This document shows, in pieces, positions 3,001 through 11,274 of a DNA stretch of 64,000 nt. The DNA lies in assembly GCF_003966655.1 (NCBI RefSeq), contig NZ_AP018795.1, forward strand, positions 868,001-932,000, given 5' to 3'. Within the stretch, counting starts at the first letter, position 1, and every line of letters begins with the position of its first letter. Both the position numbers and the translations under genes were made by a program. This stretch comes from Acidithiobacillus ferridurans. Lineage in GTDB: Bacteria; Pseudomonadota; Gammaproteobacteria; Acidithiobacillales; Acidithiobacillaceae. A model generated the notes under the pieces. That model searched no databases, had not been told where the DNA came from, and saw only the letters and a program-made list of their open reading frames with translations.

Positions 3001-3157
3001 GGCCCATCTCGGCGGCACCCTCTTCTTCTTCCTGCGCGGGCTGCAAGGACCGGAGCAAGGCATGCTCCATCTTCCCGCCGACCTCGCCCTGCTCGATGCC
3101 CTCGACGGCCTCTTCGGCGGACCGCAGCGAGCAACCCAGCCAGGAGTAAGCCCATGA
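2..3157 (+). CDS. recB: RecB, exodeoxyribonuclease V beta subunit (5'-truncated by window edge)
   Basis: Helicase-nuclease subunit of RecBCD, which processes double-strand DNA ends in the cytoplasm. The reading frame is open from base 2, so the true start and the Walker A segment lie upstream. Visible SF1 helicase motifs are DEFQDT (about residue 254 of the visible part), GDPKQSIYAFRG (about 287), TIHAAKGLQYP (about 622) and LYVALTRAEHAL. The C-terminal RecB nuclease domain has GFMDLVF followed by YYVLDYKSN (about residue 947), so the nuclease site looks intact. The stop overlaps the recD start (ATGA at 3154-3157), as expected for translational coupling. Confidence 0.95.
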   Translation, partial: FRETLLLDETDLRDDAVRDFWRQEIYPLSEPVLDEVLQLFSSPDKIRQETEALCKLDPPLPAPESTLADWLSAAVGAPRRQLATLKAQWAAEHDAFAEWLLGLVNGPKADNPLNGKSLSAAIVSRALAALRDWADHSDILIPDEPDKCQRLAASQLPEYCKKTPPLVIHPAAETLDTLFRELETIAQQFAQLHGEIRTHAAAWINARLSQLKAQSGQVSFADYQQRLARVLHDKTQGPALAARLRQKYPAALIDEFQDTSALQYQIFDDIYHAADNDPNTLLLLIGDPKQSIYAFRGADIGSYLQARRLTEGRHYALGTNYRSSHALVSALNAIYTAAEHDDPQGAFAYAAPGADNPLPYQPVQAHGHQKVWRIHGKAAPALTFWNAGGKLNKGDYLERCAAQAAECIVGLLDNPEAGFAQEGEITRRLEAKDIAILVRDHHEAASIRQALHHRRLRSVFLSERDSVYASEEARELLLWLEAVAEPEDARRLRVALALPLLGRSFSALDAFHQDEAAWEAQLEQFQDLSRQWRRQGVLAMLHHSIHQFGIAARLLTQPEGERRLTNLLHLGELLQQASATLDGPEALIRHLREAIAAGSDQSDAHILRLESDAGLLRVVTIHAAKGLQYPLVFLPFIATCRPARANPFTVIHSADGQSAIHWESGDTAAAERARLQEDLRLLYVALTRAEHALWLGLAERQDRKSHIFTGSAIAHLLGSERTARDLATLLEDCARRSPEIVVETLPDSIPTTLFMRPLDNAHNPPAEYTASFEKHWGVASFSHLVRELPADPAAPPTPRRAQAGAPWHRYPQGMNAGTFLHDQLQRLARNGFAQIGQDHFAEQLHKTCAQAGLGDWVEETAEWLQAIVHSPLAPLTATLCDLSDTLSEMAFWFPSDALRSDDLDRLCQQHIFPDADRPRLPQRVIHGMMRGFMDLVFEQGGRYYVLDYKSNVLGSEDADYHAKALRDATLGHRYELQSSLYQLALHRLLRQRMGSRYRPEAHLGGTLFFFLRGLQGPEQGMLHLPADLALLDALDGLFGGPQRATQPGVSP

Positions 3158-5092
3158 CCAGCCCCATGATCGACCAACTCCGCGCCTGGACCAGCGCCGG
3201 CTGGCTACGGCCCCTCGACCTTGCCTTCGCGCAGTTCCTCATCCGCCTGGACCCGCAGGCCCCGGCCCTCCTGCCCCTGGCGGGCGCCCTCCTCGCGCGG
3301 CTGGAGGGAGAAGGCCACACCTGCATCGCGCTGGAAGACTTCCTCGGCGCGCCCGAACGCTTCCTGGACTGGCCTGCGTCGGGGCACGCCATGCTGGCCA
3401 CCGCACTCGGTGACTGGCCCCATGCCGCCCAATGGACGGAAACCCTCGCCCGTAGCCTCTGCGTACAGGTCACCGAACGCAACGCCTCCGACCCGGCAAA
3501 CGGCGCAGAAACACCCCTGGTCCTCAGCGCCGCCCGCCTCTATTTGCGCCGCTACTGGCGCGACCAGCAATTCATCGCCGCGACCCTGCGCCAGCGCGCC
3601 CAACAGCGCGTCGCCGATGCCGCCAACCCCGAGGTCTTAAGGCCCTGGCTGGAGCAGCTTTTCCCGGCATCTGATGAACCCGACGATGCACTCCCCTGGC
3701 AAAAAATCGCCTGCGCCCTCGCCCTGCGCAGCCACTTCAGCATCATCACCGGCGGCCCCGGTACCGGCAAAACCTACACCGCCGCGCGCTTCATGGCCTT
3801 GCTCATGGCGACCAGCAGCACACCCCTGCGCATCGTGCTTGCCGCCCCCACCGGCAAGGCCGCCGTGCGCATCGACGAATCCCTGCAGAGCGCGGTCGGC
3901 ACCCTTCCGCAATTGAGCCGAATACCCGATATGACTGCCGCCTTCGCCCGCCTGCGTCCGGCGCGCACCCTGCACAGCCTGCTCGGCGCCCGCCCCGACA
4001 GTCGTCGCTTTCGCCACGATGCCGCCAACCCCTCGAACTGGACGTACTCGTGGTGGACGAAGCCTCCATGATTCATCAGGAGATGATGGCCGCCTTGCTC
4101 CGCGCCCTGCCGCCTGCGGCCCGCCTCATCCTCCTCGGCGATCAGGACCAGCTTGCCTCCGTCGAAGCGGGAGCGGTGCTGGCCGAACTCAGTCTCGGCA
4201 GCGGTAAATACGACGCCGAGACCTGCCGCTATATGCAGGCCAGTTGCGGTGCCGCGCCGCAGCCCGGCGACAACGGCCCCGGCCCCCTTGCCGCAAACAT
4301 CATCCGCCTGCAACGCAGCCATCGCTTCAATGCAGAAATCGGCGCGCTGGCGGACGCCGTGCATAGCGGCCACCCCGAAACCGCCATCCGTATCCTGCAA
4401 ACGGCGCACACTGGCACCCTCGCCTGGCAACCCGCCCCCGCCATCCACCAGATACTGGAACTCGCCCGCTCGGAAAGCGCCTATGGTCCGGTCTGGCAAA
4501 CTGCAGGCCAGCCGCCACCCAAAGACCGGCAACAACATAGCGCATGGGTTAAAACCATCCTCAACGACTACGCTGGTTTCCGCGTCCTCTGTGCCCTGCG
4601 CCAAGGCCCCTGGGGCGTTACCGGCGTCAACCGCGCCATCGAAGACTACTTGCAGCGCCAGGGCATCCTGCAGAGCCGCGGCCTTTGGTATGCCGGCCGC
4701 CCCACCCTCGTCACCCGCAATGATCCCAACCTCGGCCTCAGCAATGGCGACATCGGCATCGCCCTGCCCGACCTGGATAAACGCCTGCGCGTCTACTTCC
4801 CCAATGGCGAAGCCCCCCCCGCGCCATCCTCCCCAGCCGCCTCAACCACACCGAAAGCGCCTGGGCCATGACCGTCCACAAGGCACAGGGTTCTGAGTTT
4901 GCCCACACCGTCCTCATCATTCCCCCGGAAGACAGCCCCGTCCTCAGCCGCGAACTGCTCTACACGGCCATCACCCGCGCCCGCAAATGCTTCACCCTCA
5001 TCGCTCCCCGGGAGCGACTGGAAAACGCCATTCAGCGCCAGACACGGCGAATGAGCGGGTTACATGCGGCGTTAAATGATCCCAGGCGCTGA
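3154..5092 (+). pseudogene. recD: RecD, exodeoxyribonuclease V alpha subunit, interrupted by two frameshifts
   Basis: 5'-3' SF1 helicase of RecBCD. The coding capacity is split over three frames: 3154-about 4030 (GGPGTGKTYTAA Walker A, PTGKAA), about 4030-4818 (VVDEASM Walker B, LLGDQDQLASVEAGAV) and about 4818-5092 (TVHKAQGSEF, LYTAITRARK). Adding one C to the run at 4029-4032 and one C to the eight-C run at 4813-4820 restores a continuous protein of about 646 residues, normal for RecD. All motifs survive, so the gene is either a very recent pseudogene or intact with two homopolymer undercalls in the assembly. I favour the latter. Confidence 0.88.
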
Positions 5093-5164: not shown

Positions 5165-5202
5165 GTCATAACATAGTCATGCAATCTTCATATTAGTGTC
5201 AC
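5165..5202 (+). promoter_or_regulatory. Operator array 1: four direct repeats at 11-bp steps
   Basis: GTCAT-like pentamers begin at 5165, 5176, 5187 (TTCAT) and 5198 (GTCAC), exactly 11 bp apart. A -10-like TTACGCTAA begins at 5212. The spacing and TGTCAT core match the layout of PhoB boxes and other OmpR-family sites, where tandem monomers occupy successive 11-bp units. The array lies before the short ORF at 5258 and the regulator gene, which suggests autoregulation. Regulator identity is inference. Confidence 0.75.
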
Positions 5203-5257
5203 ATAAGCCAGTTACGCTAAGGGGAGCCGCTATATCAGCCCCCATAAGGAGATCTGC

Positions 5258-5386
5258 ATGAGTCAACCCACGGGCACACACGTACCCCAACCGGGCGTCA
5301 TCGAATCCCTCAACCATGCCCTGATGAACTTCTTCCATTGGTTCGTCACCTTCACGGCAAGCATGAGATTTTTACCATGTTATTGA
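5258..5386 (+). CDS. Short 42-residue ORF between operator array and regulator
   Basis: An ATG preceded by AAGGAG at 5246-5251 opens a 42-codon frame ending TGA at 5384-5386. The product has a hydrophilic start (MSQPTGTH) and an aromatic, weakly hydrophobic middle (MNFFHWFVTF). It overlaps the possible regulator start at 5377. It could be a small membrane peptide, a leader whose translation opens the regulator start, or a remnant. I recognise no family. Confidence 0.4.
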   Translation: MSQPTGTHVPQPGVIESLNHALMNFFHWFVTFTASMRFLPCY

Positions 5387-6198
5387 TTTTACTAGATAGT
5401 GTTGTTGTACACAGCGTACATGTGCTACATGCGGCGATGCTGGCGCAGACGCGCGCGCCCCTGCCGATCCGGACCGAATCACCGCAAGGCCCACGAATCC
5501 TTCTGCTGGTGAATGCACGGACCAACGGTAAAACGATCGTCTCTGTCGAAATAGCTCTGGAACGCACCGGCGGCAGGGTAATGCGGGTCACCGAGCGTGC
5601 CGAAGCCGAACAGTTGGTGCGCCGCTGGGATCCTCAAGTAATGGTCCTGCTCGGGTGGTCTAGCAGTATGCGCGACTGGCTGCGGCATCTGCAATTCGCA
5701 TCGCGTCAGGGCGAATTGCCCTTCCTGGTGGTCGGCAATAGTGCGGGAGAAAACCACGAGGAAACAAACGCCGTAGCGGCTCTGGAAACAGGTGCACAGG
5801 CGTATATCCCTGCCGGTATGGGGCTGGGAATCTTAACCGCCCAGGTATGCGGTCTCCTCAAAAAGCTGCGCACACAAGCACCTGCCCGATTGGTTCAAGA
5901 GGAAAACCTCTGCATCGATCTGGTATCACTGCGTGTCTGGATATTGGGACAGGAAATTCATCTACCGCGACGACTTTTCTATCTGCTGTACTATTTCGCC
6001 ACCCATCCGGACGAAGTCGTTTCCAACGAGCAGATCGCCGATATCCTGTGGGGGGGCAAGAGCACCTATCTCGCTCCCAATACCCTGGTGGTCAAGATTT
6101 ATCGTCTACGCAAAATTCTGGAAAGTGCCGGCGCCAAAGGCTGGCTGGAAACAGTGCACAGTTTCGGATACCGCTTTTCACCACCAAAGAATGTGTGA
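5377..6198 (+). CDS. Orphan OmpR/PhoB-type winged-helix regulator with degenerate receiver domain
   Basis: The C-terminal half (about residues 175-270) is a typical Trans_reg_C winged helix: LCIDLVSLRVWILGQEI, then LPRRLFYLLYYFATHPDEVV, SNEQIADILWGG, LVVKIYRLRKIL and VHSFGYRF. The N-terminal half keeps the receiver pattern (ILLLVNART, DPQVMVLLGW, AYIPAGMG), but the acidic pair, the phospho-acceptor Asp and the conserved Lys are replaced by N/A, L/G and P. It therefore probably works without phosphorylation. No histidine kinase is adjacent. The start is uncertain: ATG 5377 is chosen, but TTG 5338 and ATG 5437 are in frame. It lies among three matching operator arrays and likely controls the two downstream TonB receptors. 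Confidence 0.82.
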   Translation: MLLILLDSVVVHSVHVLHAAMLAQTRAPLPIRTESPQGPRILLLVNARTNGKTIVSVEIALERTGGRVMRVTERAEAEQLVRRWDPQVMVLLGWSSSMRDWLRHLQFASRQGELPFLVVGNSAGENHEETNAVAALETGAQAYIPAGMGLGILTAQVCGLLKKLRTQAPARLVQEENLCIDLVSLRVWILGQEIHLPRRLFYLLYYFATHPDEVVSNEQIADILWGGKSTYLAPNTLVVKIYRLRKILESAGAKGWLETVHSFGYRFSPPKNV

Positions 6199-6201
6199 AA
6201 T

Positions 6202-6250
6202 GTCATAATAACGTCATAACAATGTCATATTAACGCCACCTCAGTGACAC
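6202..6250 (+). promoter_or_regulatory. Operator array 2: five units at 11-bp steps before TonB receptor 1
   Basis: GTCAT occurs at 6202, 6213 and 6224, followed by weaker units GCCAC at 6235 and GACAC at 6246, all 11 bp apart. A -10-like TATTCG follows at 6261-6266, the same offset as in the other arrays. The last unit sits in AGTGACACA, close to AGTGTCACA at the end of arrays 1 and 3. The array starts 3 bp after the regulator stop. Confidence 0.78.
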
Positions 6251-6311
6251 ATGGATGCAATATTCGGCCGTTAGTATAGGGGCCATTCCAAGAGGCAAGA
6301 GGCGTATATCC

Positions 6312-8717
6312 GTGAAACATCAGTATCGTTATCATCCTTTATTTAGTGCATTGATTGCTGCGGGTTTATGTGGGATGTCCAGCATGGCGCTCGCTACCGG
6401 TGTAACCGCTCCCACCACCTCGTCCAGTATTAGCGTTGGAGAAGTATCCTCTACCACCGGCGCTCTAAACACGCTGACCCATCTCCCCACTAAAAAACAG
6501 GTGTTCAATTCCACCCAGTCGGTAAAAGTCATCAATAAGCGTCAGATGGCTACCGCAGGGCCGGCGGGTGGGGCGGCACAAGCGCTGGCCGTGGCCCCGG
6601 GCATCAATGTCGCCACCGATGGCCCGAGTGGCGCGCCGCGCTCATCGATCAGCATCAACGGCATGAAGACCGGCTGGGGCAACATCGCGGGCAACGCGAA
6701 TGATGGCACGGTCATGGTCACTTTTGACGGTGTACCCATGGTGGATCCGGCTTACGGCGTCTGGCAGGGCTCAGAGCTGCCCCAGATGTCCATGATCAGG
6801 GGCATTACCGCAACCTACGGTCCAGGCTATCCGCTGAATCGCTGGTACAACAATATTGGCGGATCCATTAATTTTTCGCCGCTGCAACCGACCAGGAAGG
6901 CCGGGGCATCCATAGGCATGTACTATGGGAGTTTTGATTCCAAAGGTATCCACTTCAATATTCGCACTGGCCAGCACGACGGCTGGTCAGGGATCATTGC
7001 GGGTGGGGTAGGCAGCAGCGGAAACTATTTGAACGGGTATGGGTTCAACAATCCCGGTAATAATTATGCCTATTATGGAAAGGTCCGGAAAAGCTTTCGT
7101 GGCGGCCACATCAGTTTTGGTGGCTACGTCTCACGTTCTGTGGCCTACAGACCATTGCCAATCCCGGTAACCGCCAATCCCAATGTCACTATCTACGGGG
7201 TCAACCCAAATACCGGAACCGTGAATCCCGGACCCATCTACAGTCAACAAACCACGGGCTTTTATACCACCCTCCCATATTCTGTTTACTGGAAGGAAGC
7301 TTTTGTAAAGACCTATCTCATTTATTCTCGCTTCGAACAACATCTTACCCCCAGCATGGTGATCCATAACCTGCTATGGTATCGCTATGGCGACCGCGTG
7401 CATCTGCACTACAACAATACCGGCAATGCTGCCAACGTGCTGAATCAGCATTATAACGCCTCCGACCATACCTACGGGGACAAGCTTTATCTGACCGTAA
7501 ACGCACCATACAACAATATTTCACTCGGCGGGTATTTCCTGAACTCGAAATACAACTCCCTGTTGTATTTCTACAATCAGAACCAGATTGCGACTTATGA
7601 TTCGCTAAGCCCCAATGCCGGAAATAACGTAATCATCAATGGTTCTCCGGTATACAACAGCCCATCCTTGCCGAGCGCATTCCATAGCTCGTATCTCTAC
7701 ATGACAGACCTTGCGGCCTTTGTCCAAGACGTCATCCACCCTATCCATGGTCTGCGCATTACCCCCGGTATCCGCGTGGTTCAGTTTCAAACCAACTTTG
7801 TGAACAACTCTGCCGCCCAATTCCCCACGAGTGTGGCTAACCTGATCGGCCACAACGGCGATTATCAACCGAACTCATCGACGAATTTCACCGAGTTCGA
7901 ACCGTCCATCGGCATCAACTATAAGGTGACGCCCAATGTTGCGCTATATGGAAACTACGCCACCGGCTACAAGGCACCGGCGGGCGCTACCGGGACGTAT
8001 GCGCATGAATTGACATCCACGTTACAGCCGCAAAAGTCGACACAGTACCAGATTGGGGTAAAGGCGTATGTCAAAAGTTATGGACTGCTGCATCACGCCG
8101 TCTTCAATGCTAATTACTACCATCTGAATGATACCAATGAAATCATCCCCATCCCGGTTGTCAACCATCTTTACTCGCGCTTCGCATCGGGTTCGTCGGT
8201 ATTCAGCGGTGTCAATCTGTCGATGGACGACAATCCGCTCTACAATCTATACCTGTTCTCCAACGTGAGTTTCGAGAAGGCCACTTACTCAAACTACACC
8301 ACCGGTCATGGCGTATCCTACGCTGGCTTGCCTATTTCTAATGTGCCGGCGCAAACCGCCAACATCGGCGCCTACTATCAGCTTTATAATTCGGGCATTC
8401 TTTATGAGCCAAGAGTCTGGTGGCAGTATACCGGTGTCCAGAACATCTACAACAACAACACCGGAGCTCCCACAAGTCAGAAATTGCCCAGTTTTGGCAT
8501 ATTCAATGCCGCACTGCGGGTCAAGGTATCCAAAAGATATCTGTTTGCCGGGATGCATGATGCCTCGGTTAATGTAACAGTCCTTAATCTTCTGAATAAG
8601 CAATACAACAATTACGAGTATATTTCCGGTGGCGGCTATTATGGCGTGGCCGGCCAGATACTTGGGGAACCAGGTATGCCACGCTCGGTTTATCTTAGTA
8701 TCAACGCCTCATTCTAG
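6312..8717 (+). CDS. TonB-dependent outer-membrane receptor 1
   Basis: Predicted outer-membrane beta-barrel that imports a ligand, possibly an iron or other metal chelate, using TonB energy. From GTG 6312 the product has a signal peptide (ALIAAGLCGMSSMALA, about residues 13-28), a linker, a plug domain (GAAQALAVAPGINV, SISINGMK, VTFDGVPM, IRGITATYGPG, NNIGGSINF) and a barrel ending in aromatic Phe (VYLSINASF). An in-frame ATG at 6255 is rejected because it overlaps the -10 region behind array 2. Length of about 801 aa suits a receptor without an N-terminal signalling domain. The ligand cannot be told from sequence. Confidence 0.9.
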   Translation: MKHQYRYHPLFSALIAAGLCGMSSMALATGVTAPTTSSSISVGEVSSTTGALNTLTHLPTKKQVFNSTQSVKVINKRQMATAGPAGGAAQALAVAPGINVATDGPSGAPRSSISINGMKTGWGNIAGNANDGTVMVTFDGVPMVDPAYGVWQGSELPQMSMIRGITATYGPGYPLNRWYNNIGGSINFSPLQPTRKAGASIGMYYGSFDSKGIHFNIRTGQHDGWSGIIAGGVGSSGNYLNGYGFNNPGNNYAYYGKVRKSFRGGHISFGGYVSRSVAYRPLPIPVTANPNVTIYGVNPNTGTVNPGPIYSQQTTGFYTTLPYSVYWKEAFVKTYLIYSRFEQHLTPSMVIHNLLWYRYGDRVHLHYNNTGNAANVLNQHYNASDHTYGDKLYLTVNAPYNNISLGGYFLNSKYNSLLYFYNQNQIATYDSLSPNAGNNVIINGSPVYNSPSLPSAFHSSYLYMTDLAAFVQDVIHPIHGLRITPGIRVVQFQTNFVNNSAAQFPTSVANLIGHNGDYQPNSSTNFTEFEPSIGINYKVTPNVALYGNYATGYKAPAGATGTYAHELTSTLQPQKSTQYQIGVKAYVKSYGLLHHAVFNANYYHLNDTNEIIPIPVVNHLYSRFASGSSVFSGVNLSMDDNPLYNLYLFSNVSFEKATYSNYTTGHGVSYAGLPISNVPAQTANIGAYYQLYNSGILYEPRVWWQYTGVQNIYNNNTGAPTSQKLPSFGIFNAALRVKVSKRYLFAGMHDASVNVTVLNLLNKQYNNYEYISGGGYYGVAGQILGEPGMPRSVYLSINASF

Positions 8718-8783
8718 CATTACGAAGTAATACGGTTCGCCGGGGCGAGTCATTCCTTCGCCTCGGTTTTTAGCCGTATTATT

Positions 8784-8821
8784 GTCATATTATGGTCATT
8801 GTAACGTAATAATAGTGTCAC
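8784..8821 (+). promoter_or_regulatory. Operator array 3: four units at 11-bp steps before TonB receptor 2
   Basis: Units begin at 8784 (GTCAT), 8795 (GTCAT), 8806 (GTAAT) and 8817 (GTCAC), exactly 11 bp apart, with -10-like TATCGT at 8832-8837. Phase, unit number and the terminal AGTGTCACA are the same as in array 1. This is the third member of a local regulon. Confidence 0.78.
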
Positions 8822-8911
8822 AATTCTCCTGTATCGTTTTCCCCGTTGTTTGGGCAACATTAATGAAATCATGCAGCTTTATACGATCATATTCTTATAC
8901 AGGAGCCAGAA

Positions 8912-11274
8912 ATGAATAAGCGGACTCGTATGAACCCGTTATTGTTCGCAATGTGTACCGCAGGGCTTTGCACCTGGAATACCCTGACAGCCGCATATGG
9001 TGCCAATTCAGGCGGCCAATCCACCAGTGTCGGCGAGGTAAATGCTTCGGCCAGCGCACTTTCTAAATCTGCCAAGGCGCTGGCCAGCACCGACGGCAAG
9101 CTGACCAAGAAGAAAATCTTCCAATCCACCCAATCCCAGGCGGTTCTCGGGAAGCGTGAAATTCAGGGTGTAGGTCCCGCCGCGGGGGCGGCACAAGCGC
9201 TCTCTCTGGCACCCGGCATCGCTGTCCGTGGTTATGGCGGTATCTCCTCGACCGCGCGCTATGAAATCGCAGTGCGCGGCGTAAAGGTAGGCTGGTCATC
9301 CGTGAATGGTGACGTCGAGCGCAATGGCTTGACGGTGCTGTTTGACGGAATCCCCATGAACAACCTGATTTCCCATAACGGCGGCTGGGATTCCAACGAA
9401 ATCCCCATTCTCCAGATGATCCATGGCATCAACGTGACCTATGGCCCCGGAAATCCCGCCGGCCGGTGGTTCGACAGCGTCGGTGGCACCATCAACTTTG
9501 TGCCGCTGCAGCCATCCGTAAATCCGAGCGCTGAAATAGGTACCACCTTCGGCAGTAATGGCACCCTCGGCTACAACTTTGACCTCAAAACGGGAATGTA
9601 CGATGGCTGGTCCGCGGTTCTGGCCGGAGGTTATACGAAAAACAATACCTTCCGCACCGGTACGTTCAATGCGCCGTCCCAGTCTCTCGCCTATTTTGGC
9701 AAGGCGGTGAAGACCTTCCGGAGTGGCACCTTCAGCCTTGGCGGCTATGTCGACAGTTCGCGCGAGTTCAGGCCCAATTTCATACCGGTCACCCCGATAC
9801 CGGGCATCACCACCCAGGGCCTGAACGCCAATGCGCCTTTGTATAGCCAACAGACCAGCGGGTTTTATGCATCTCTGCCTGAGTCCATCTGGTTTAAGCA
9901 ATTGAAAGTACAAGGCTACATGTTGTACTCCAAGTTGAACCTCCAGCTCAGCAGGGACGTCACCCTGCACGAAATGGCCTGGTATCGCCATGGCCACCGG
10001 GTGCATTACCGCATTACCAACTTTGTACCAGGAAGCAGCGTGAATTCCGAGTATTACCATCCGAACTCGGAAACTTATGGCGACAAGCTGTATTTCGACT
10101 GGCGCCTGCCTATGAATCTCCTGAAGGCCGGAGGGTCGTGGATTCATCAGCAATACACCACGCCCTATGCAGGATACAATACACTCATGGGCACCAGCCC
10201 CTCCTTCCCCAGTCAGTACAATAGTGACGTTCTGTATAACAACTATCTGACGGGCTTCATTCAGGACACGTTCACCCCGTTCTCCGGCTTCAAGATTACT
10301 CCGGGCATTGCTGCCGTCCAGTATCAGACCCAGATGTATAATAATGGGGCCCAGGCATTCCCCAATCTTCCTGCCGGCGCCCAAAATCAGACGCTGATCA
10401 ACAGTGCTGCGGATACCATATCCGGTCTTGAACCTTCGGTTGGAGTTCGCTTTGCTCCGGTAAAGTGGGGCTCACTATATGCCCATTATGCCCGGTCTTA
10501 TCAAAATCCCACCGACAATAACTTTGGCGCCTACAACAGCCACGGAGGCAATATAGACTTCAACAGTTTAAAACCGGTAAAAAGCACGGATTATGAAGTC
10601 GGAGCCAAGTTTTTCGTGCACAACTGGATGTTGCTGCATAACTTCACGTTCAATATCAACTACTACTATGATCACTTGGCCAATGAGACCATAGCGACCT
10701 ATCTGACAAACATCGCACAAACCAAGTTTGCCGCGGCCAATGCAGTGGTGAACGGCGTCAATATCGCCATGGCCGACAACCCCTCCTGGAACTGGCATCT
10801 GTTCGCCAATCTGGCGCTCAATCATTCGTACTACACCTCGTATACGCCGCAGGGTGGGGGTACGACCTTATATGGCGCCAACGTATCTTATAGCCCGTAC
10901 CTCACCATGAGCGCGGGTATTGACTATCGCTACTACTACCATGGATTCCTGTTCTCCCCACAGTTCGTGGATCAATACACCAGTTCACAGTACCTCTTCA
11001 ATAATTTAACCGGTGCGCCATCGCACCAGAAGCAGCCGGGATACAATGTCTCCAACCTCAGTCTTGGATAAAAACGACCCGATTGAATCCATACATCCCG
11101 ACCCTGAAAGACGTGAAGCTCTCCGTGGGAATATACAATCTCTTTGATGCACACTATAACCCCATTGAGTACATCACCAGTGGTGGATACTTTGGCGGTA
11201 ACAGTACCGGTGCCATTCTGGCTGATCCGGGGGCACCACGGCAGTATTTTATGACGGTATCGGCGAAGTTCTAA
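8912..11274 (+). pseudogene. TonB-dependent outer-membrane receptor 2, frameshifted near the 3' end
   Basis: Paralogue of receptor 1 with the same layout: signal peptide, STSVGEVNAS linker, KKKIFQSTQS, plug (GAAQALSLAPGIAV, VLFDGIPM, IHGINVTYGPG, DSVGGTINF) and barrel. A stop occurs at 11069-11071 after VSNLSLG. The missing C-terminus continues in the -1 frame from about 11074 (KLSVGIYNLFDAHYNP, then YFMTVSAKF with terminal Phe). Adding one base at 11066-11071 restores about 787 residues. As called, the protein would lose its last three to four beta-strands and the C-terminal Phe needed for BAM recognition. Sequencing error is a real alternative. The start ATG 8912 follows CAGGAG. Confidence 0.85.

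What the first reader, a model, noticed from the sequence alone, without database searches (positions are those of the whole stretch)
5165..8837. Three operator arrays with exact 11-bp phasing define a local TonB-receptor regulon
Arrays at 5165-5202, 6202-6250 and 8784-8821 each contain four or five GTCAT-like units at exactly 11-bp steps. Each ends in AGTG(T/A)CACA and is followed about 10 bp later by a -10-like hexamer. They precede the regulator (with a short ORF) and each of two paralogous TonB receptors. Established: OmpR-family proteins such as PhoB bind tandem 11-bp units with a TGTCA core. Inference: the orphan regulator at 5377-6198 binds all three. Four or five units is more than a typical two-unit Pho box, implying cooperative oligomer loading.
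Basis: partly seen in the sequence, partly recalled or inferred. Interest (0 to 1): 0.8.

Follow-up and report, generated by a model that had tools for sequence, protein, structure and literature searches.

The report
Phosphate-starvation boxes before TonB receptor genes
The three repeat arrays look like phosphate-starvation switches that recur across this acid-loving bacterium's genome and most likely respond to the ordinary regulator PhoB, while the neighbouring regulator is an unusual PhoB cousin that looks like one of the switched genes rather than the main reader.

Summary
The arrays are real (0.02 expected) but not a local regulon. The same four-unit array occurs at 10 places in the 2.92 Mb genome (reversed-pattern control 0), including before pstSCA, phosphoesterase, porin and TonB genes; a profile adds exbB and an olsBA-like pair. 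Leaving out array 2, TAnnnT sits 10 bp after the last unit in 9 of 9. E. coli K-12 pstS has the same layout, so four units are not new. A PhoB over the curated cut-off is present. Best reading: Pho boxes activated by PhoB-P. The neighbouring regulator belongs to a separate clade (46 members) that lacks the aligned phospho-aspartate, lysine and sigma-contact acid; it sits behind a Pho box and is probably a modulator. The 'short ORF' is the stump of a phosphate-symporter-like gene. Array 2 probably has six in-register units with its -10 at 6272. Against a pure PhoB reading: two sister-family genomes with PhoB show no such arrays, and many-site use is unusual in the class. Mixed PhoB-orphan arrays remain open.

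The parts
5165..5202 (+). Array 1: four 11-bp Pho units (GTCAT, GTCAT, TTCAT, GTCAC) before the symporter stump and regulator
   Evidence: found upstream in relatives
5213..5218 (+). -10 hexamer TACGCT, 10 bp after the last unit
5258..5386 (+). Short ORF: stump (residues 1-38) of an MFS phosphate:H+ symporter-like gene that is intact between array and regulator in some relatives
   Evidence: 63% identity over 38 aa to the L080 MFS
5377..6198 (+). PhoB-like pseudo-receiver regulator (273 aa), PF00486 DNA-binding domain, degenerate receiver
6202..6261 (+). Array 2: in-register units at 6202, 6213, 6224 (GTCAT), 6235 (GCCAC), 6246 (GACAC), 6257 (GCAAT, degenerate)
6237..6251 (+). Conserved stretch CACCTCAGTGACRCA inside array 2, also at related promoters of relatives; function unknown, candidate second-factor site
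   Evidence: weakened
6272..6277 (+). Probable true -10 of array 2, TAGTAT (10 bp after the sixth unit)
6312..8717 (+). TonB-dependent receptor 1 (ORF open from 6255; likely start GTG 6312)
   Evidence: start inferred from promoter position
8784..8821 (+). Array 3: four 11-bp Pho units (GTCAT, GTCAT, GTAAT, GTCAC)
8832..8837 (+). -10 hexamer TATCGT, 10 bp after the last unit
8912..11071 (+). TonB-dependent receptor 2, reading frame broken near the C-terminus (a further receptor match at 11095-11271 in another frame)

Best explanation
The three arrays are extended Pho boxes. When phosphate runs low, phosphorylated PhoB (encoded elsewhere, next to pst- and phoU-like ORFs) loads head-to-tail on the 11-bp units; the protomer on the last unit touches sigma-70 region 4 in place of a -35 element, and transcription starts from the -10 placed 10 bp further. 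The window locus is one branch of a genome-wide Pho regulon (pstSCA, olsBA-like, phosphoesterases, OprD-type porin, ExbB/TonB and TonB receptors), a phosphorus-acquisition locus. The local regulator is a PhoB-derived pseudo-receiver protein: a Pho target, most likely a phosphorylation-independent modulator, not the primary reader. Shown: sequence, spacing, gene context, conservation, residue losses. Inferred: PhoB binding, phosphate response, modulator role.
For: Ten distinct genome-wide arrays, control 0; targets include PstS/PstC/PstA over curated cut-offs, phosphoesterase PF04185, OprD, TBDR, ExbB, TonB, an OlsB/OlsA-like pair. The -10 spacing was not used to find the ten arrays: TA stands 10 bp after the last unit in 10 of 10 if array 2 is cut after GACAC, and TAnnnT in 9 of 9 without array 2; no other offset from 0 to 24 exceeds 3. 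E. coli K-12 pstS promoter: same four units, same 10-bp step to TATTTT. PhoB over the TIGR02154 cut-off in the own genome and in 27 of 29 family genomes, with every listed receiver and DNA-contact residue in the 12 of these 27 that I aligned. Profile matches in 29 of 29 family genomes; olsB promoter array with 5 or fewer mismatches at 24 of 28 loci. Orphan loci sit with arrays (40 of 46) and TonB-system genes (38 of 46). PhoB acting on TonB-system promoters through pho boxes is shown in P. aeruginosa (PMC4971064, passages).
Against: No binding or expression data. The genome's own phoB-pst region shows no four-unit array at 3 mismatches, only a two-unit match with 1 mismatch. Two genomes of the sister family (100% complete by estimate) have PhoB but no profile match at E 0.01 and no orphan at E 1e-25, though three family genomes with divergent orphans (G021, G022, G026) also miss that cut. 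In 367 class genomes outside the family none has more than 4 raw matches at 2 mismatches, against 9 here, 9 in G018 and 3 in G020, so many-site use goes with this family; orphans were not sought in the 367. The window orphan keeps three of four reported base contacts (T194, V197, R201), so it could bind the same units. Two of 10 arrays have no recognisable Pho target (L020, L021).
Confidence: 0.8

Rival explanations
1. PhoB and the orphan share the arrays: PhoB-P takes the canonical distal units and the orphan, induced by the same starvation, takes others (perhaps the conserved CACCTCAGTGACRCA stretch), so that array length sets a mixed occupancy that tunes or caps output.
For: Many-site four-unit arrays occur in the family that bears the orphans and not in the two sister-family genomes. 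R201 is kept in 45 of 46 orphans and the DNA-binding domain is strongly conserved in the 8 close relatives aligned, while an acid at the E191 position is absent in 46 of 46. The 16 sites with at most 1 mismatch to GTCACCTCAGTGACRCA all have in-register TAnnnT and lie in 7 of the 10 genomes with a window-type orphan (65% identity or more) and in 0 of the 19 others. Precedent: BldM-WhiI heterodimers (PMC12632262 section 19).
Against: Carriers of the stretch are close relatives, so co-occurrence is confounded by descent. A similar variant penultimate unit (GTCGC or GCCGC then ACTATT) is conserved at olsB with and without window-type orphans. GACAT units occur in ordinary arrays (L020, L024). A 9-member orphan subclade shares the window protein's N-T-V-V-K-Y contact residues, yet G001, G005, G010 and G016, which carry it, lack the stretch at 1 mismatch. 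The orphan cut misses divergent orphans, and orphans were not sought in the 367 class genomes.
Confidence: 0.2
2. One reading: the orphan regulator is the main activator of a local three-promoter TonB-receptor regulon.
For: Adjacency; array-regulator-array layout in relatives; OmpR-type DNA-binding domain; three of four reported base contacts kept.
Against: Arrays are genome-wide and precede general phosphate genes; canonical PhoB present with contacts that the orphans lack (R193N 46 of 46, R219 to H or P 45 of 46, no acid at E191 46 of 46); E. coli pstS has the same array.
Confidence: 0.06
3. The locus is mainly an iron-uptake cluster under Fur, with phosphate control secondary (cf. the published proposal of an iron-phosphate circuit).
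For: PMC2631029 (passages) treats Acidithiobacillus TonB receptors as ferri-siderophore transporters, notes PhoB-like regulators before TonB/phosphatase clusters and cites Fur control of one PhoB-family regulator. I did not match the window's receptors to its gene names.
Against: The promoters here carry in-register Pho arrays at a fixed distance from the -10. The receptors score far below the NCBIfam siderophore and heme receptor cut-offs. I did not scan for Fur boxes.
Confidence: 0.05

Closest known systems
E. coli pstS extended Pho box (two tandem Pho boxes read by PhoB)
   Same: Four 11-bp units with GTCAT/GTCAC cores and the -10 10 bp after the last unit
   Different: pstS is the one E. 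coli example I fetched; here about a dozen sites use it, including TonB receptor promoters, and array 2 runs to six units with degenerate proximal ones
P. aeruginosa PUMA3 (pdtA, phdA-pdtB-exbB2D2-tonB4; PhoB plus sigma VreI)
   Same: Phosphate-starvation TonB system with pho boxes bound by PhoB and a second local regulator (PMC4971064 passages)
   Different: There the second factor is an ECF sigma factor and the Pho box lies upstream of a -35; here it is a PhoB-like pseudo-receiver protein and the box stands in for the -35
Atypical OmpR/PhoB regulators with pseudo-receivers (e.g. ChxR, HP1043; PMC12632262 section 18)
   Same: Receiver homologue lacking the phosphorylation residues, intact winged-helix domain
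   Different: Gene sits behind Pho boxes beside TonB genes; the acid that faces sigma in PhoB is absent too
Acidithiobacillus PhoB-like regulator/TonB/phosphatase clusters (PMC2631029, 2008)
   Same: Same kind of locus; PhoB-like regulators upstream of TonB receptors and phosphatases already noted
   Different: The passages seen do not describe the arrays, the degenerate receivers, the symporter stump or genome-wide sites; I did not read the whole paper

Membership tests
Pho box (PhoB operator) | Head-to-tail 11-bp units with a TGTCA-like core | tested here: met
Pho box (PhoB operator) | Replaces the -35; -10 about 10 bp after the last unit | tested here: met
   TAnnnT at offset 10 in 9 of 9 arrays besides array 2; array 2 via its sixth unit; E. 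coli pstS the same
Pho box (PhoB operator) | Same operator before known phosphate genes in the genome | tested here: met
   PstSCA, phosphoesterase, olsBA-like
Pho box (PhoB operator) | Canonical PhoB present | tested here: met
   303.9 bits vs cut-off 296.2
Pho box (PhoB operator) | Bound by PhoB-P and induced by low phosphate | not testable with these tools
   needs footprint and expression data
PhoB equivalog (TIGR02154), for the regulator 5377-6198 | Score over curated cut-off 296.2 | tested here: not met
   100.7 bits
PhoB equivalog (TIGR02154), for the regulator 5377-6198 | Phosphoacceptor Asp, acidic pair, Lys | tested here: not met
   aligned E9, D10, D53 and K105 positions are V, N, L (Gly one column on) and A
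Pseudo-receiver (atypical) OmpR/PhoB-subfamily regulator | N-domain homologous to receivers but lacking catalytic residues | tested here: met
   HHalign 99.0%, E 8.8e-18, orphan profile against PhoB and other receivers; residues
Pseudo-receiver (atypical) OmpR/PhoB-subfamily regulator | Winged-helix Trans_reg_C domain | tested here: met
   PF00486 3.3e-17
Pseudo-receiver (atypical) OmpR/PhoB-subfamily regulator | Receiver fold in a structure | tested here: inconclusive
   AlphaFold mean pLDDT 39.3, not used
PUMA3-like PhoB + ECF sigma TonB system | ECF sigma and anti-sigma genes in the locus | not tested
   no search made for them

The most novel reading that the evidence does not exclude
A PhoB duplicate that gave up phosphorylation and the sigma-facing acid has become a starvation-induced structural subunit of long Pho arrays: PhoB-P and the orphan load the same 4-6 unit arrays, so that array length and unit sequence (including CACCTCAGTGACRCA) encode promoter-specific dampening or thresholds. 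This would explain why the family that bears the orphan clade uses four-unit arrays at many promoters.
Probability: 0.2. Interest if true: 0.72.

Novelty: new member of a known kind. Interest (0 to 1): 0.4.

Why it matters
It ties TonB receptors, of a kind that published annotation treats as siderophore receptors (PMC2631029, passages), to phosphorus acquisition in an acidophile, and it exposes a clade of PhoB-derived regulators in this family that kept a conserved DNA-binding domain but lost phosphorylation residues and the acid that faces sigma. How pseudo-receivers are switched is called a mystery in a 2025 review (PMC12632262, abstract); a clade whose supply seems to be set by its own parent regulator would be a clean test case.

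Tried and rejected
AlphaFold model of the regulator (8 sequences): mean pLDDT 39.3, not used and no fold search made.

The idea that CACCTCAGTGACRCA is simply the orphan's own site: kept only as a rival, since a similar variant unit is conserved at olsB without window-type orphans.

The idea that four units are unusual in themselves: rejected on E. coli pstS. One search points the same way (83 of 367 class genomes outside the family have at least one match at 2 mismatches; reversed-pattern control 8 raw matches in the 370), but those matches were not checked to be promoters, and some are simple tandem repeats.

Sister-family genomes as a natural test of PhoB alone: no arrays found there, so the test gave no support to my reading; two genomes only, the profile was built from this genome, and the orphan cut used (E 1e-25) also misses divergent orphans in G021, G022 and G026.

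Rows dropped or selected: the 19 'in-context' sites were chosen by eye before the count; the selection-free subset is the 16 sites with at most 1 mismatch. Of 32 rows, 30 were examined and 2 (both G002, no locus) were not. Array 2 counts as TA in 10 of 10 only through TATTCG, which I later set aside. Of 28 olsB loci, 24 have 5 or fewer mismatches, 2 have 7, 1 hit began inside the gene so its upstream was not reached, and 1 (second copy in G004) has none; the register there was picked as best-scoring with a bonus for the -10. Regulators: 46 orphan rows, 12 of the 27 PhoB found, and 5 other regulators picked up from the loci. In one search at most 150 candidates a genome were scored, so counts are lower bounds. 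E. coli PhoB numbering is recalled; its residues appear in the alignment.
Full report
OBSERVATION. The three arrays are present at the stated coordinates. A four-unit pattern (GTCAT, GTCAT, GTCAT, GTCAY at 11-bp steps, up to 3 mismatches) matches only at these three places in the 64 kb; 0.02 matches are expected and no shuffle of 100 reaches the observed 5 overlapping matches.

SOURCE.

GENOME-WIDE. In the window's own genome (one contig, 2,921,399 bp) the same pattern gives 13 matches at 10 distinct places, with 0 for the reversed pattern. Besides the three in the window these stand before: a third TonB receptor (L018); a second PhoB-like orphan followed by ExbB, TonB and a PF04185 phosphoesterase (L019); a 931-aa protein with a PF04185 segment (L023); an OprD-family porin (L022); PstS with PstC and PstA (L024, over curated cut-offs: 338.4 vs 205, 251.1 vs 196.45, 193.5 vs 193.45); a 327-aa protein without a Pfam match (L020); and one place with no clear gene (L021). 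A sequence profile of the ten sites adds two at E below 1e-4: before exbB (L019, 2.3e-7) and before an OlsB/OlsA-like pair (L113, 2.2e-5) (best named NCBIfam matches 165 and 107 bits, below their equivalog cut-offs of 350 and 300). The ten match the profile by construction.

ARCHITECTURE. The ten arrays were found without regard to the -10. Ten bp after the last unit stands TA in 10 of 10 if array 2 is cut after GACAC (there TATTCG), and TAnnnT in 9 of 9 if array 2 is left out; no other offset from 0 to 24 exceeds 3 of 10. The olsBA-like site has CATAAT at that place. The E. coli K-12 pstS promoter, fetched from NC_000913.3, has the same four units with 2 mismatches and TATTTT at the same 10 bp. 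A review defines the Pho box as two 11-nt direct repeats and notes multiple Pho boxes at E. coli ugp (PMC4415409, passages). So 'more than a typical Pho box' is not a novelty in itself.

ARRAY 2 RE-READ. In relatives the promoter after this regulator contains a near-invariant CACCTCAGTGACRCA. Searching GTCACCTCAGTGACRCA with up to 2 mismatches in 29 family genomes gave 32 rows. The 16 rows with at most 1 mismatch, plus 3 with 2 that I judged in context, have TAnnnT at +37, that is unit, unit, unit, 10 bp (19 of 19); 11 other 2-mismatch rows have none; 2 rows were not examined.

WHO READS THEM. A canonical PhoB lies at C1:2188031 (303.9 bits, cut-off 296.2); the ORFs beside it look like pst and phoU by eye (no family search on them). 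PhoB over the cut-off is found in 27 of 29 family genomes; the other two are 81% and 71% complete. In the 12 of these 27 that I aligned the receiver quartet and the DNA-contact positions are those of E. coli PhoB (E. coli DNA-binding residues, numbering and receiver residues recalled; roles from PMC3973317 passages: R201 to guanine, T194 and V197 to thymines, R219 between half-sites, E177/E191 towards sigma).

THE ORPHAN. The regulator at 5377-6198 is one of 46 related proteins collected from the family; they form one clade apart from PhoB (100/100, which warns of long branches). Its N-terminal part is a receiver homologue (HHalign 99.0%, E 8.8e-18), but no Asp or Lys stands at the aligned D53 and K105 positions in 46 of 46. 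Some members, including the second orphan in L019, have an Asp one column later, so its loss is alignment-dependent there; the window protein has Gly at that column. R193 is Asn in 46 of 46, R219 is His or Pro in 45 of 46, no acid stands at E191 in 46 of 46; R201 is kept in 45, T217 in 46, T194 in 32 and V197 in 25. The window protein keeps T194, V197 and R201. An array (4 or fewer mismatches plus TA) lies within 2 kb upstream in 37 of 46, up- or just downstream in 40 of 46; TonB-system genes lie in the fetched stretch in 38 of 46; some stretches end at contig edges. So it is a Pho-box-linked, apparently non-phosphorylatable PhoB relative. By analogy with pseudo-receivers whose supply is the control (PMC12632262 sections 18 and 19) I infer a modulator.

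THE SHORT ORF. In several relatives an intact MFS gene (L080: 485 aa, best NCBIfam match phosphate:H+ symporter TIGR00887, 305.6 bits, below its cut-off 610.3) stands between the array and the regulator; the window's 42-aa ORF matches its residues 1-38 at 63%. The second orphan appears to carry the first residues of such a symporter fused to its own start (inference).

RESULTS AGAINST. The phoB-pst region has no four-unit array at 3 mismatches, only a two-unit match. Two genomes of the sister family have PhoB but no array at E 0.01 and no orphan at E 1e-25; that orphan cut also misses G021, G022 and G026, which do have divergent orphans. Among 370 class genomes, 83 of 367 outside the family have at least one match at 2 mismatches and none has more than 4 raw matches, against 9, 9 and 3 in the three family genomes drawn; reversed-pattern control 8 raw matches in all. 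Orphans were not sought in those genomes. Many-site four-unit arrays therefore go with this family, which keeps a PhoB-plus-orphan array alive. On the other side, the olsB promoter array is conserved in genomes with and without window-type orphans (24 of 28 loci with 5 or fewer mismatches) and carries a similar variant penultimate unit, so the CACCTCAGTGACRCA stretch is not proof of a second factor.

PRINT. PMC2631029 (2008; passages) already places PhoB-like OmpR regulators upstream of TonB/phosphatase clusters in Acidithiobacillus and proposes an iron-phosphate circuit. PMC2621215 (passages) lists pst and PhoR/PhoB. No paper in the held library has both 'Acidithiobacillus' and 'Pho box'; 30 have 'Acidithiobacillus' and 'PhoB', 25 listed, of which I read passages of these two. 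In P. aeruginosa PhoB binds pho boxes of a TonB system together with a second regulator (PMC4971064, passages).

VERDICT. Confirmed observation, ordinary core explanation (Pho regulon), with a moderately interesting PhoB-derived pseudo-receiver clade whose role is open.

Noticed in passing
window 8912-11271: The second TonB receptor's frame breaks near 11071, leaving its C-terminus in another frame; relatives G007 and G013 have an open frame there, and in G006 the gene's matches are split by about 2.4 kb.
   Followed up: partly
window 3154-5092: A RecD-like gene appears as three ORFs in different frames (by eye, no family search), which may mean frame errors in this assembly or a decayed gene.
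   Followed up: no
L019:5187-5990: The second orphan regulator seems to carry the first residues of the lost phosphate symporter fused to its N-terminus.
   Followed up: partly
L113:5232-7004: A Pho array precedes an OlsB/OlsA-like pair (ornithine lipid synthesis), and that promoter array is conserved at most olsB loci of the family, mostly with CATAAT or CATACT as -10.
   Followed up: yes
L021:7323-7360 and L020:5434-5471: Two arrays with a correctly placed -10 have no recognisable Pho target (no clear gene; a 327-aa protein without Pfam match).
   Followed up: no
L105 and L107: In G020 and G004, further orphan regulators sit beside PstS-like genes, with no TonB-system gene found in the fetched stretch.
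   Followed up: no
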